DNA of 35,132 nt from a virus: positions 1-35,132 of the IMG/VR virus record IMGVR_UViG_3300003885_000028; one strand, given 5' to 3'. The position numbers were made by a program, and so were the translations under genes. Below the pieces are notes generated by a model that ran no database searches, was not told where the DNA came from, and saw nothing but the letters and a program-made list of their open reading frames with translations. Below, in pieces: positions 5,629 to 33,635 of this stretch; position 1 is the first letter of the stretch, and every line of letters starts with the position of its first letter.

Positions 5629-5670
5629 TTGTCATAGATTGTAAACTTTTTGTCATAGATTGTAAACTTT
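5629..5670. repeat. Perfect 21-bp tandem direct repeat, two copies
   Basis: The unit beginning TTGTCATAGATTG and ending GTAAACTTT occurs at 5629-5649 and again at 5650-5670 with no mismatch and no spacer. It starts eight bases after the repressor stop codon. A period of 21 bp puts both copies on the same face of the helix, which suggests a pair of protein-binding sites or an iteron-like element rather than coding DNA. Confidence 0.85.
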
Positions 5671-7359: not shown

Positions 7360-7875
7360 AGAATGCAGTATAAAACCTATTAGGAATTGTTTTGGTCTAT
7401 ATAAATCAACAACTTACAAAGACGATAAACTCAATGAAAGTAAGGTAGAAATTGTGATTTCTGTGTTTTAGGTGAAAATAACTGTGAAAACGCGTTTTTT
7501 GTTGTAACTAATTTAACCAGTGTTTATGTGGTCTTTGTAACCATGCTGTATTTGGGAGTCGTGAGGAATCGGGCGCAAAGCCTTTGCTTTACTACGATTG
7601 GGGTGATAACTACTGTGTTTTCAGTGACTTACTTAATGGCGGGAAAGAGTTAAAATACAAGTTAAGTTTAGCGCAATAAACCAATTAGGTTTAAGGGTTC
7701 AAAAAAACCGTTACCCAGTATACCTCTATAGCCTGCGCTTGTGGTTGAAAAATTAAATCACAAAACCACTTTTCACAAAAATATATTTTCTACCCCTCCA
7801 AAACAGCCTTTTTTGTGATTTACCTACCCTCAAAAACACCAAAAACCACAAAACCTCACCTTAAAAGCCGGTTAT
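7360..7875. other. Non-coding stretch beside int, candidate attP/arm-site region
   Basis: About 515 bases without a credible gene. Visible structure: an exact 11-bp inverted pair AAATCACAAAA (7755-7765) and TTTTGTGATTT (7811-7821), a third related TTGTGATTT (7452-7460), GTGGTT/AACCAC flanking the first, and a 13-bp dyad GCAAAGCCTTTGC (7575-7587). Repeated short sites near an integrase gene fit arm-type integrase or IHF binding sites. No tRNA gene or clear core duplication was found, so the attP call is tentative. Confidence 0.4.
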
Positions 7876-10139: not shown

Positions 10140-10268
10140 AATATTTACTCCTTTTTAAAGGTGGTGTGTGTTACTGCATCCTTTTTCAATTACCACGATA
10201 ATTTCTCTTTGTTAATATAAAGCTTTACAGGATTGGCAAGCAACTCCCCTGTTCAGTTTTATGTTGAT

Positions 10269-10859
10269 TTAAAACTTATGTTGTACACCAAGCATAGTCG
10301 TAGTTGGATTATAATTAAATGTAATTCCACCACTTCCAAACTCTAAATCATACGTTGTGCGATCAAGTGTAATTGCAGTGCTTGGTGAAAACCATAACTT
10401 TGCACCAACACCATACGCCTTACCCGTATCGGTAGATGACATGCTATAGTTATTAACCGAGAGTGTTGCTTCACCGCGACTTAATCCTGCGCGAGCACTT
10501 AGATCGAACGGTTTACCTAGAAAGGTAGCGACGTTCCAATCACCCACAAGCCAAAATGTTTTAGCATCTGCTTCAAACTGTGTTGTTGTATTATGATGTG
10601 GCGATCTATCTGCTTCACCAAAGTCAGCCACCTCAAACTCTAAAGATAACCAAGTCATAGCGGGTAACGTATAGCCTACCGCAATACTTTTTGCTTTTGC
10701 TTTATCGTCAAAGTAAGCATTAACAAATGGTTCGTTATAATCATAATCAGTTGAGCCAATGGCAACACGCGCATAAGGGCCCGCTTCGGCCTCATCGGTA
10801 CAAGCAATTAATAGTGTTGATAAAAATACTGCGAGTAATAAAAATCCTATCTTCTTCAT
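10269..10859 (-). CDS. Lom-like outer-membrane beta-barrel with lipoprotein-type signal
   Basis: A 196-residue exported protein, starting at the Met of MKKIGFLLLAVFLSTLLIAC, with GGGGG seven bases upstream. The signal peptide ends in a lipobox LIAC; an alternative signal-peptidase-I site is AEA-GPY. The mature part alternates polar and apolar residues in strands (YARVAIGSTDYDY, SIAVGYTLPAMTWLSLEFEV, AKTFWLVGDWNV, FDLSARAGLSRGEA, KAYGVGAKLWFSPS) and ends in Phe (MLGVQHKF), the classic C-terminal signal of an outer-membrane barrel. It lies just downstream of the tail fibre, the same place as lom in lambda. It probably alters the lysogen surface or blocks superinfection. Confidence 0.8.
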   Translation of the reverse strand: MKKIGFLLLAVFLSTLLIACTDEAEAGPYARVAIGSTDYDYNEPFVNAYFDDKAKAKSIAVGYTLPAMTWLSLEFEVADFGEADRSPHHNTTTQFEADAKTFWLVGDWNVATFLGKPFDLSARAGLSRGEATLSVNNYSMSSTDTGKAYGVGAKLWFSPSTAITLDRTTYDLEFGSGGITFNYNPTTTMLGVQHKF

Positions 10860-10947
10860 GGTAAAACCCCCCATTGGGTTGTTGTTGTAATATTTCCGTT
10901 AATTTATTAGCCTTAGCTTGTCCCCCTTTGGCGCTCAGTGAACTTCA

Positions 10948-24053: not shown

Positions 24054-24087
24054 TTTAATAAAATGGGCTAACAATTGCGTTAGCCCA
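24054..24087 (-). terminator. Terminator hairpin directly after the major capsid gene
   Basis: TGGGCTAAC (24064-24072) and GTTAGCCCA (24079-24087) form a perfect nine-pair stem with a six-base loop. On the minus strand it is followed by TTTTATT. It is 16 bases after the capsid stop. Its position matches that of the T-phi terminator after gene 10 in T7 and could set a higher capsid-to-tail expression ratio. Confidence 0.75.
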
Positions 24088-24102
24088 CCAAGATCGAGTC
24101 TT

Positions 24103-24969
24103 TTAAGTTAAAGAATCTTTAAGCTGCCAATGAACAATCTGTTCATCCTCAACTCGAACTGCACCCCACGTACCGTAGCAGTACACGCGCCATGCAAAAC
24201 TAATGCTTGGATCTTCTGCAACACGCACCGCAATATCACGGTTCATTTGCATACCAATCGCACGCTTAGTCATTGCAAAACAAGATATTTCACCTGCGTT
24301 TGGTGCAAGTAAACGGGTTGATACAATCCAATCAAAACCCATCCACGAACGAACAAAGCCGTTTGATGCAAGTGACTTGATGTTCACGTAATCGCTTGAG
24401 GTGTATTCAGTGAGTTGTTGCATTTTACGCAACTGGGTAGGGCCGATGATCATGTACTTTGTTTCTTCTGGATCGATATCGTTTTCCATGAACTTCTCAT
24501 AGACTTCGGTAACGCCATCAAAAGAAAACACGCCCGTACCATCACCGACTAGCTGGCTTGCAGGAAAAGCATTATTAACGCCCTGCCCATCAAGTGCTGT
24601 ACCTGTTGCGGCCGCGATGATCGTGTCATCTTGCGCACGCTTCATTGCCATTGCTAATGAATGAGCAATATTAGATTGTGGATCAACGAGCATTTGAATA
24701 GGATCTTCTTGCTCTACTGTGTCACCAACGTTCCACGTTTCAGCAATAGAAACTCGACGACTCCAAGATGAATCATTTTCTGGTGTCGCTTGACGTGCAG
24801 ATGTTTTTTGAATAGCAACATTAGAACCCATTCGTTCCCAGTTGTGTTTTTCAGACGAAACGCCGCGCTCGTCAACAGTCATGCGTAAACGTGCCATTCT
24901 TTGTTGTGCGAGATGTCGAACGATATTTTCAAACGTCTCGATATAGACGTTACTAATTGAAATAGCCAT
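24103..24969 (-). CDS. Major capsid protein
   Basis: A 288-residue phage capsid protein of the podoviral capsid group. Visible are an N-terminal helix that starts AISISNVYIETFENIVRH, then QKTSARQATPENDSSW, a spine-helix-like MLVDPQSNIAHSLAMAMKRA with DDTIIAAATGTALDG, and the C-terminal ISFAWRVYCYGTWGAVRVED strand pair that is typical for the last capsid strands. Position is standard: after portal and scaffold, before the tail tube genes. GGAGC lies eight to nine bases before the ATG. A 186-base non-coding leader with two hairpins precedes it and a terminator follows it, which suggests separate control. Confidence 0.9.
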   Translation of the reverse strand: MAISISNVYIETFENIVRHLAQQRMARLRMTVDERGVSSEKHNWERMGSNVAIQKTSARQATPENDSSWSRRVSIAETWNVGDTVEQEDPIQMLVDPQSNIAHSLAMAMKRAQDDTIIAAATGTALDGQGVNNAFPASQLVGDGTGVFSFDGVTEVYEKFMENDIDPEETKYMIIGPTQLRKMQQLTEYTSSDYVNIKSLASNGFVRSWMGFDWIVSTRLLAPNAGEISCFAMTKRAIGMQMNRDIAVRVAEDPSISFAWRVYCYGTWGAVRVEDEQIVHWQLKDSLT

Positions 24970-25037
24970 TTGAATAGCTCCTTAAAAAGTTATTTAAACT
25001 TTCGTCTAGAGCTACCCAACGCTATTGTCGGACTATG

Positions 25038-27903: not shown

Positions 27904-29274
27904 CTATCCAATTGAGCGTTTAACTTTTGGTTTGGTTGCAAAGGGATTAAACATATCAGGCGAGTCATCAACCCAGCCTGTCGCAAGAACACGAAATGCA
28001 TCAGCACCGTGACTAGCCCAGTTGTGAGTAGGTGAATTGCGATAACGTTTCATGTTGTCATCCCATGCGCGCTCATAACCAAATAAGGCTTCAATGCCTT
28101 GGTTAGTTTCGCTGTCATGGAAAGTACATCGAGGGAGTAGTGCGCGAACGGCTTCAATACCATCTTCAATAAAGAGTTTGGGAACAACGGTAAAGTCGAG
28201 GCCCATATCAAAAGCCAGTTCTTTACGTGTTTTACCTGTTTCGTAGGAGCGCACCATTATGTCGTGCGGTGCAAGGTGTTCGAGGTAGTTATAGTTACGG
28301 GATAAAACATAACCGACATGATCGGTTAATGGTTTATTTCTTACTTCATAATATTCAATAACACGTGGCCCACCTTCGTAAGGTTGAACAAACCAAATAG
28401 CGGTCGCATCATGAATACCCAAGTCCCAACTTGTAACAACAGGACGAGTGGGATCGTAAGGATAGTGACCAATAAGACTAGGCTCACTATGGCGAAGTTG
28501 TGTAATAAGATCCGCATAGTAAGCGCCAATGTTTCCCGCATCAAACGAGTTATAAAATTCTTGTTGCACCAACTCAGAGGGCATACCGCTGGCAACTTCT
28601 TCGTCAATATCTTCTTGCGTAATTAAAGGTGTGCCATCTGCACGTTTTGACTGCGTGATATCCACTTCACTAAAATAGTAATCAGGGTTACCCGCTTCAA
28701 GTTCACGCAAGCCAACCTTATACATATCGTAACCGTGATTATGTCCACGCGGCGTATAGATAAAGATTGCCCAACCGCCGTTTTCAACTAAGATGGGTCT
28801 AAAGTAGTTATAAGCTTGTGGGTTTTGCAAAGAGTATTCTGAGAAGACGATGCCGCGTGGGTTTGTTCCCATCCATGAGTCATAAGAATCACTCCCACCC
28901 AACTGAATAGTTGAACCGTTAATCATTTCGATTAACATATCTTTTTCGTATTTCTTTTTTATTAATTGTTGCGGTATGTGGTCAATAAATTTTATACCGT
29001 CACTACCAATGCCTTGCCAGATAATTTTCTTAACTTGGGTTTGTTCGGGGGCCATGTAAAGATAGTTACCCACCTCTTCAACGGCTTTGGCTGTGATCAG
29101 ATTAATTGATGTTTTATCTTTTCCACAACGTCGATGCCATACCAAAATAAAACGTTTTGCCGCTTGCTTATTTAAACCGTACCAACTTGGAAACGCAGCT
29201 TGCCATACACCTTCTTGATATTCTCTGGGCGTGTATTGGTATGGCAGTATTATTTCATTTGCGTTTGCGTTCAC
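27904..29274 (-). CDS. terL: Terminase large subunit (packaging ATPase-nuclease)
   Basis: A 456-residue DNA-packaging motor. Walker A is WHRRCGKDKT (about 46-55), Walker B GIVFSE (about 141-146), and the C-terminal RNase H-like nuclease is marked by TSWDLGIHD with Asp284 (about 281-289) and WASHGADAFRVLA near the end. Preferred start is GTG at 29274 (reads MNANANEI), with AAGGA seven bases upstream. The 134-base leader holds the structured element at 29334-29404. It is separated from the small subunit gene by about 2.2 kb of small genes, unlike the adjacent order in most phages. Confidence 0.95.
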   Translation of the reverse strand: MNANANEIILPYQYTPREYQEGVWQAAFPSWYGLNKQAAKRFILVWHRRCGKDKTSINLITAKAVEEVGNYLYMAPEQTQVKKIIWQGIGSDGIKFIDHIPQQLIKKKYEKDMLIEMINGSTIQLGGSDSYDSWMGTNPRGIVFSEYSLQNPQAYNYFRPILVENGGWAIFIYTPRGHNHGYDMYKVGLRELEAGNPDYYFSEVDITQSKRADGTPLITQEDIDEEVASGMPSELVQQEFYNSFDAGNIGAYYADLITQLRHSEPSLIGHYPYDPTRPVVTSWDLGIHDATAIWFVQPYEGGPRVIEYYEVRNKPLTDHVGYVLSRNYNYLEHLAPHDIMVRSYETGKTRKELAFDMGLDFTVVPKLFIEDGIEAVRALLPRCTFHDSETNQGIEALFGYERAWDDNMKRYRNSPTHNWASHGADAFRVLATGWVDDSPDMFNPFATKPKVKRSIG

Positions 29275-29333
29275 AATTTATCCTTGTGTTACTTTGCAAA
29301 CGCACTACCCGCAAACGGATACGTTGTAAATTA

Positions 29334-29404
29334 TTAGGTGGCTACACCTTACCCAATAGCTAAGTGACTAAAAGCTAAAGTTCCGGTGGTAAGATGCAGC
29401 CTAA
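29334..29404 (-). ncRNA. Structured RNA element in the leader of the large terminase gene
   Basis: On the minus strand a long hairpin can be drawn by eye: TTAGG (29404-29400) with CCTAA (29338-29334), a three-base bulge CCA, CTGCATCTTACC (29399-29388) with GGTAAGGTGTAG (29353-29342) as 12 uninterrupted pairs including two G-U, and an apical TAGCT (29077 offset, 29377-29373)/AGCTA (29361-29357) stem. The two G-U pairs become A-C mismatches on the plus strand, so the transcript of the minus strand is the folded form. It ends 60 bases before the terL start. It could be an RNase III processing site, a translational control element or a packaging signal. Confidence 0.6.
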
Positions 29405-29408
29405 GCTT

Positions 29409-29729
29409 TTACTTTTTTCTATTCTTTGACTCTAGTTTTTGCGTTAAACGATTAACTTTTGCTTTATAAAATGAAATTTGTTCCTTCATTATAAGTATTA
29501 ACTCACCCTCCCTTTGCGTCTGAGCAGTAAGTTTTTTAATTACCGAGGGTGCGTTAGCGATAAACTGCGCGACATCTTCTTTTACATCATCAGGCACATC
29601 ATCATGAATAATTAAAATATAGTGGCCGCCCCACGGAGCTATGCGCCCAACTGAGGTTTCTTTAGTGTCGTGCTCGAAAGTCCAGCCGTCAAATATATCA
29701 TCTAAGCTTATATGTATATCGATTGCCAT
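29409..29729 (-). CDS. Hypothetical protein with C-terminal coiled coil (106 aa)
   Basis: A 106-residue protein with an N-terminal beta-rich half (DIHISLDDIFDGWTFEHD, GGHYILIIHDDVPDDVKED) and a helical end (ELILIMKEQISFYKAKVNRL then TQKLESKNRKK) that looks like a coiled coil. No membrane segment or motif. It is the last gene before the structured terL leader and starts three bases after the preceding stop. Function unknown. Confidence 0.65.
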   Translation of the reverse strand: MAIDIHISLDDIFDGWTFEHDTKETSVGRIAPWGGHYILIIHDDVPDDVKEDVAQFIANAPSVIKKLTAQTQREGELILIMKEQISFYKAKVNRLTQKLESKNRKK

Positions 29730-29732
29730 TTC

Positions 29733-29927
29733 TTAGAGTTCCCTTATAGCTTCTTTTATGCGAATGATTGCGGCTTCATCCATTTGCTCTTTTGTTAAAA
29801 CACCATCTTCTTCAAAGGCATTGTTTACCGCAATAATAGAAGATATTTTCGCTATTGCATTTTTACGGGCAATAGCATCACGCTTTGGTCGTTCATCAAA
29901 TTCATCTTTAAACCATCGCTTACTCAT
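29733..29927 (-). CDS. Hypothetical charged protein (64 aa)
   Basis: A 64-residue helical protein, MSKRWFKDEFDERPKRDAIA, then RKNAIAKISSIIAVNNAFEE and TKEQMDEAAIIRIKEAIREL. Rich in charged residues, with no cysteine. Its ATG overlaps the stop of the upstream gene by four bases (ATGA). Member of the run of small genes between the two terminase genes. No family recognised. Confidence 0.6.
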   Translation of the reverse strand: MSKRWFKDEFDERPKRDAIARKNAIAKISSIIAVNNAFEEDGVLTKEQMDEAAIIRIKEAIREL

Positions 29928-33262: not shown

Positions 33263-33635
33263 TTAAGTGTGTAGGGCTAGGGCTAGAGTTTAATGCTGGG
33301 CTTGGTTTTGGGTTAAACTTGAGCTGCTTGAGATTCAGTTATTGAGGACGGTTCACCCCTCAGCGCAGTCGTAAATCCCGATTCCCGCCCCCACCCCGTC
33401 TAATTTTATACTGTATTAATGTGTTTTTTCCTGAGTACATATATGTGGCTGCATTATAAGTCATTGATATTGCTAGACTTAACAATTCCTATTAGGTTTT
33501 ATTGGTGTGGTTTAGTTTGGCCTGTTATTCAATAGCGTGTTGTTGGCGCCTACCAAAACAGGTAAGGCACAACACAACCAACATAATTAAATTAAACACA
33601 AACACAAACAGCAATAGACACAAACAGAATTAAAC

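What the first reader, a model, noticed from the sequence alone, without database searches (positions are those of the whole stretch)
29334..29404. Strong structured RNA in the large-terminase leader
The minus-strand transcript folds into a 5-bp + 12-bp stem (two G-U, three-base bulge) capped by a 5-bp stem. The G-U pairs make the fold specific to the transcribed strand. T7-like phages use such hairpins as RNase III sites, but position before terL and size could equally mean translational control or a role in packaging.
Basis: partly seen in the sequence, partly recalled or inferred. Interest (0 to 1): 0.6.

Follow-up and report, generated by a model that had tools for sequence, protein, structure and literature searches.

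The report
Conserved bulged RNA hairpin, head genes

Summary
The hairpin at 29334-29404 (minus strand) is real: MFE -27.1 kcal/mol, 6 of 5000 shuffles as stable. It is absent from the only relative with a readable terL leader (L002, terL 90% identical), where the upstream gene runs straight into the leader. It matches nothing in Rfam, phage or plasmid records. It sits in sequence L002 lacks, next to an orphan 106-aa ORF.

Eight bases downstream, in the part of the leader L002 keeps, lies a different element (29325-29299): a hairpin with a G·U (or A·C) wobble followed by a 3-nt NAR bulge. The same element, in two permuted topologies, precedes the major-capsid gene in 44 of 56 dereplicated leaders, including Pelagibacter phage HTVC010P, and sits at the scaffold gene start in two lineages. 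Covariation is strong. A covariance model trained only on capsid leaders picks the terL copy as the window's best hit (E 0.0027; next hit E 3.5). Rfam has no match and my paper searches found no description. The existence of the motif is well supported; its role as a translational operator for head genes is inferred.

The parts
29334..29404 (-).
   Evidence: absent from L002; no blastn match, no exact arm match except one chance 17-mer, no Rfam match
29409..29729 (-). Orphan 106-aa ORF just upstream of the hairpin; the ORF and the hairpin are both absent from L002, where the homologue of ORF 29733-29927 runs directly into the terL leader
   Evidence: (no relative)
29299..29325 (-). Conserved bulged hairpin in the terL leader (type 2): AACGUA-U-CCG-UUUG-CGG-GUAG-UGCGUU; G.U wobble and 3-nt bulge UAG
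   Evidence: E 0.0027 with a model not trained on terL leaders; two consistent changes in L002
29281..29285 (-). Shine-Dalgarno AAGGA of terL; GTG start at 29274-29272
   Evidence: sequence
27904..29274 (-). terL, large terminase subunit
   Evidence: (phrog_2, E 5.9e-25)
25007..25037 (-). Degenerate type-2 copy in the major-capsid leader: AG-U-CCGAC..GUUGG-GUAG-CU
   Evidence: (third best hit in the window, 9.8 bits, not significant alone), homologous position in L002-L004
25074..25106 (-). Degenerate type-1 copy in the major-capsid leader: UUGG-GAUAG-CAGAUU..AAUCUG-U-CCAG (one extra base in the bulge)
   Evidence: counterparts in L003 (UUGG-GUAA-CGGG..CCCG-U-CCAG) and L002/L004
24103..24969 (-). 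Major capsid protein (Phage_capsid_2)
   Evidence: E 3e-50

Best explanation
Two separate things lie in the terL leader. (1) The reported 71-nt hairpin is a phage-specific stem in sequence, with an orphan ORF, that L002 lacks between terS and terL; at most it shapes processing or stability of this one transcript. (2) The next element (29325-29299) belongs to an RNA motif that I could not find described: two helices joined by a G.U or A.C wobble next to an invariant G-C pair, then a 3-nt NAR bulge (consensus 5'-GG-R-NAR-C-3' opposite 5'-G-Y-CC-3'). It occurs in two permuted hairpin topologies, usually one of each upstream of the major-capsid gene, also at the scaffold gene start and, in this lineage, before terL. 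Shown: existence, covariation, sense-strand and positional specificity. Inferred: because both topologies present the same local bulged duplex and because copies lie beside the ribosome-binding sites or first codons of head genes, it most likely is a binding site for a phage-encoded protein, perhaps a head-assembly protein regulating its own pathway, that controls translation of head genes.
For: Hairpin absent in L002 while the rest of the leader aligns. Unbiased scan of 56 dereplicated capsid leaders over all 16 junction pairs and 64 bulges: strongest enrichment is G.U (37 vs 7.2+-3.0 in shuffles) and A.C (19 vs 6.1+-3.1), bulges UAG/CAA/UAA/CAG; wobble plus NAR 42 vs 2.3+-1.2. With NAR bulges the adjacent pair is G-C in 42 of 42 although any Watson-Crick pair was allowed. 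Type-2 alignment: 63 double-change cells vs 17 shuffled, covariation 0.646 vs 0.267, slid frames 0.08-0.22; type 1 likewise. Model trained without terL rows finds the terL copy first in the window. 70 of 70 hits on the sense strand of the capsid-gene loci, 69 just upstream of the capsid gene. Copies at +11 to +22 nt of the scaffold start codon in two lineages with opposite topology.
Against: No biochemical or expression data; no binding protein identified. The terL copy is known in only two phages (window, L002). In the window's own capsid leader both copies are degenerate. Motif pairing in the collected alignments was partly a selection criterion. A switch in which the helix next to the start site traps the Shine-Dalgarno was tested and not supported. 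The predicted probability of the terL copy in its own leader context is only about 0.5.
Confidence: 0.55

Rival explanations
1. The 71-nt hairpin is an RNase III processing site of the T7 kind, cut in its internal loop to separate the accessory gene from terL.
For: Shape fits: 14-bp lower stem, asymmetric internal loop, short upper stem, between two genes of one transcription unit.
Against: Not conserved: L002 does without it. No other late-operon junction has a similar stem except the capsid leader. No transcript data; T7-type sites could not be tested.
Confidence: 0.2
2. The bulged hairpins act on transcription (pausing or antitermination, as HK022 put RNA does) rather than on translation.
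For: Leaders carry pairs of hairpins and precede long structural operons. A terminator-like stem follows the capsid gene in the window.
Against: Copies lie beside start codons of individual genes, and within the first codons of the scaffold gene, not at the operon start; nothing terminator-like follows them.
Confidence: 0.15
3. The conserved element is a DNA feature (promoter or operator) and the pairing is incidental.
For: GGGTAG before genes resembles the start of some phage promoters (general knowledge; no tool result supports it).
Against: Double-sided compensatory changes, G.U/A.C exchange at one position, two topologies with the strands joined differently, all hits on the sense strand, copies inside coding sequence.
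Confidence: 0.04
4. A small-molecule riboswitch: the bulged helices bind a metabolite.
For: Conserved unpaired bases and paired copies, as in tandem riboswitches.
Against: Associated with head genes only, not with metabolism; hosts as different as Pelagibacter and Vibrio; very short motif.
Confidence: 0.06
5. The 71-nt hairpin is a chance or decaying structure with no function.
For: Absent in L002, no homologue anywhere searched; other equally strong stems occur in the window by energy.
Against: Significant against shuffles (6 of 5000) and both mismatches of the inverted repeat are G-U in the transcript.
Confidence: 0.4

Closest known systems
Translational operators bound by phage proteins (MS2/Qbeta coat protein operators; T4 RegA and gp32 targets, reviewed in PMC3014915)
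   Same: Small mRNA hairpin with bulged or unpaired bases close to the start site of a structural or essential gene; several targets in one phage would form a regulon.
   Different: Here a 3-nt NAR bulge next to a wobble pair, two permuted topologies, often two copies per leader, DNA podovirus-like phages; no binding protein known.
T7-type RNase III sites
   Same: The 71-nt hairpin has a long lower stem, internal loop and upper stem between genes.
   Different: Single copy, not conserved, no evidence of cleavage; the conserved bulged hairpins have helices of 3-8 bp, too short for a standard RNase III substrate (general knowledge).
HK022 put RNA antiterminators
   Same: Two adjacent cis-acting hairpins in phage RNA.
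   Different: From memory, put lies at the start of early operons and has other sequence; here copies sit at individual head genes.

Membership tests
T7-type RNase III processing site (71-nt hairpin) | Conserved among related phages at the same junction | tested here: not met
   Absent in L002; only one relative can be read
T7-type RNase III processing site (71-nt hairpin) | RNase III-dependent cleavage in the internal loop | not testable with these tools
   needs RNA from infected cells
Intrinsic terminator (71-nt hairpin) | G+C-rich stem followed by a run of U | tested here: not met
   one search lists no terminator here; stem followed by ACCUAAUAAUUUACA
Any Rfam 15 family | Match above gathering score | tested here: not met
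   none; weak searches give only chance-level eukaryotic RNA matches
Phage translational operator (works-like claim for the bulged hairpin) | Structured element with compensatory changes near the start of the regulated gene | tested here: met
Phage translational operator (works-like claim for the bulged hairpin) | Bound by a protein that changes translation | not testable with these tools
   no binding data available
The bulged-hairpin motif itself (terL copy as a member) | Wobble pair, NAR bulge, adjacent G-C, two helices | tested here: met
   21.9 bits, E 0.0027 with a model built without terL sequences; next hit 9.8 bits

The most novel reading that the evidence does not exclude
One undescribed RNA motif, readable in two permuted topologies, marks terL, scaffold and capsid mRNAs of a wide group of podovirus-like phages including the abundant HTVC010P-type pelagiphages, and a phage head-assembly protein binds it to balance head-protein synthesis.
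Probability: 0.4. Interest if true: 0.75.

Novelty: new variant of a known kind. Interest (0 to 1): 0.6.

Why it matters
If the motif is a protein-bound operator, it would be a shared post-transcriptional control of head assembly in phages of very common marine bacteria, and it gives an immediate handle: HTVC010P, Alteromonas phage ZP6 and Vibrio phages CKB-S2 and K300 carry copies and are cultured or deposited. The exchange of G.U for A.C at one position and the two strand topologies give clear predictions for which structure is recognised.

Tried and rejected
Rfam at gathering and lax thresholds: nothing. The single 17-mer match of the stem in IMG/VR (L011) is chance: no other similarity. 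The 106-aa ORF has no relatives. terL leaders of 77 loci show no shared hairpin of the 71-nt kind. Integron attC and terminator readings of the 71-nt hairpin were rejected by inspection. A riboswitch-like switch in which the 3' strand of the second hairpin traps the Shine-Dalgarno: complementarity 4.21 vs 4.01+-0.16 with swapped leaders, not significant. A prophage search in genome contigs gave only one partial hit. MAFFT misaligned the type-1 set, so equal-length members were used and the rest counted by script. Descriptor hits across whole genomes are mostly noise, so covariance models were used for claims. Paper searches found nothing on this motif; only open-licence papers are held.

Full report
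What was reported. The terminase call is right: 27904-29274 matches phrog_2. The window is a 35-kb virus record of a podovirus-like phage with integrase-like and VapE-like genes.

The hairpin itself. It folds at -27.1 kcal/mol, z -3.6, with 6 of 5000 shuffles as stable. The plus strand reaches only -18.6. By raw energy it is about 18th among 80-nt windows of this record, so it is strong but not extreme.

The hairpin is phage-specific as far as can be seen. Three contigs share a terL of about 90% identity, but only L002 extends upstream of terL. L002 keeps the last 60 bases of the leader at about 80% identity and the start of terL, yet has no hairpin: the small ORF homologous to window ORF 29733-29927 ends directly at the leader. 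In the window the orphan 106-aa ORF 29409-29729 and the hairpin stand in between. No related hairpin was found in phage or plasmid records, by paired-arm pattern or by 17-mers of either arm. With one informative relative, gain in the window and loss in L002 cannot be told apart.

A different element in the same leader. Scanning other intergenic regions showed a significant hairpin in the major-capsid leader, and comparison with relatives revealed a recurring unit: two helices joined by G.U, or the isosteric A.C, followed by a 3-nt bulge. In type 1 the bulge is on the 5' strand (L055: AUUGG-GUAG-CAC-GUAA-GUG-U-CCAAU). In type 2 the strands are permuted (L065: GUGAAUG-U-CCAG..UUGG-GUAG-CGUUCGC). 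Each capsid leader usually has type 1 about 95-140 nt and type 2 about 55-75 nt before the start codon. The terL leader of the window has one type-2 copy at 29325-29299, which L002 shares with two changes that keep pairing.

Is it real? An open scan of 56 dereplicated leaders, allowing all junction pairs and all bulges, gave G.U 37 (shuffled 7.2+-3.0) and A.C 19 (6.1+-3.1) as the leading enrichments; G-C (15 vs 5.6) and C-G (12 vs 5.6) were milder. Bulges UAG, CAA, UAA and CAG dominate, and wobble plus NAR gives 42 against 2.3+-1.2. The pair beside the wobble is G-C in 42 of 42, which the scan did not require. Pair counting gives covariation 0.646 against 0.267 for shuffles and at most 0.22 for slid frames; type 1 gives 0.622 against 0.254. 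The alignments were collected by a descriptor that asks for pairing, so the percentage paired alone proves little. The stronger arguments are the features not asked for, the transfer across genes, and the strand bias.

Transfer test. A covariance model of type 2 built only from capsid leaders was run over the window with filters off. The terL copy came first at 21.9 bits, E 0.0027; the next was 9.8 bits; the third was the degenerate capsid-leader copy of this phage. In 79 capsid-gene loci the model made 70 hits, all on the sense strand and all but one close upstream of the capsid gene; many of those loci are near-identical and some supplied training sequences. In 79 terminase-region and cultured-phage sources, hits fall mainly on capsid leaders, the scaffold gene start and the L002 terL leader; a few lie inside other genes (L009 7753, L192 1132).

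Cultured phages. Copies occur in the capsid leaders of Pelagibacter phages HTVC010P, HTVC203P, Lederberg, Greip and Baldr, Alteromonas phage ZP6, Vibrio phages CKB-S2 and K300, and assembled genome MW202510. In four pelagiphages a type-1 copy starts 11 nt after the scaffold start codon; HTVC203P shows CGCAG/CUGCG where HTVC010P has CACAG/CUGUG, a two-sided change. In another lineage (L031, L045, L048, L054, L065) a type-2 copy sits 13-22 nt after the scaffold start. The motif was not found in 12 of 56 dereplicated leaders by the stricter descriptor, the window's own degenerate capsid leader among them.

Mechanism. Shown: a local bulged RNA duplex is under selection next to start sites of head genes. 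Inferred: since G.U and A.C occur mixed within one leader (L093, L141, L170) and the duplex appears in both strand topologies, the ligand reads the local three-dimensional shape, most simply a phage protein; position suggests translation control. Autogenous regulation by a scaffold protein is known from P22 (from memory, not found in the held papers). A generic Shine-Dalgarno trapping switch was tested and failed. The capsid leader of the window's own lineage does place its Shine-Dalgarno in a 12-bp stem, so local variations exist.

Novelty. No Rfam 15 family matches, and the held literature has no description under the terms tried. It is best called a new motif within the known kind of phage mRNA cis-elements.

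Noticed in passing
24970-25019 (-): The capsid gene's Shine-Dalgarno lies in a 12-bp hairpin (UUGGGUAGCUCU/GGAGCUAUUCAA, z -4.9) that competes with the type-2 copy; L002-L004 keep a comparable stem with changed letters.
   Followed up: partly
24060-24117 (-): Terminator-like stem GGUGGGCUAACG/UGUUAGCCCAUU followed by UU directly after the major capsid gene, z -4.9.
   Followed up: no
29264-29303 (-): 9-bp inverted repeat UGCGUUUGC..GCAAACGCA encloses the Shine-Dalgarno and GTG start of terL; only partly kept in L002.
   Followed up: partly
7370-7391 and 33481-33502: 22-nt inverted repeat, 95% complementary, 26 kb apart; one arm lies just upstream of the integrase gene: possible operator or attachment-related sequence.
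   Followed up: no
5629-5670: Perfect tandem duplication of a 21-nt unit TTGTCATAGATTGTAAACTTT in an intergenic region.
   Followed up: no
10227-10252 (-): Weak type-1 match (14 bits, E 0.17) just after the stop of gene 10269-10874.
   Followed up: no
L190 5622-5798 (HTVC010P gp08): This annotated ORF overlaps the type-1 hairpin of the capsid leader and may be non-coding leader RNA rather than a gene; a similar small ORF (Lederberg_17) overlaps the capsid leader in L182.
   Followed up: no
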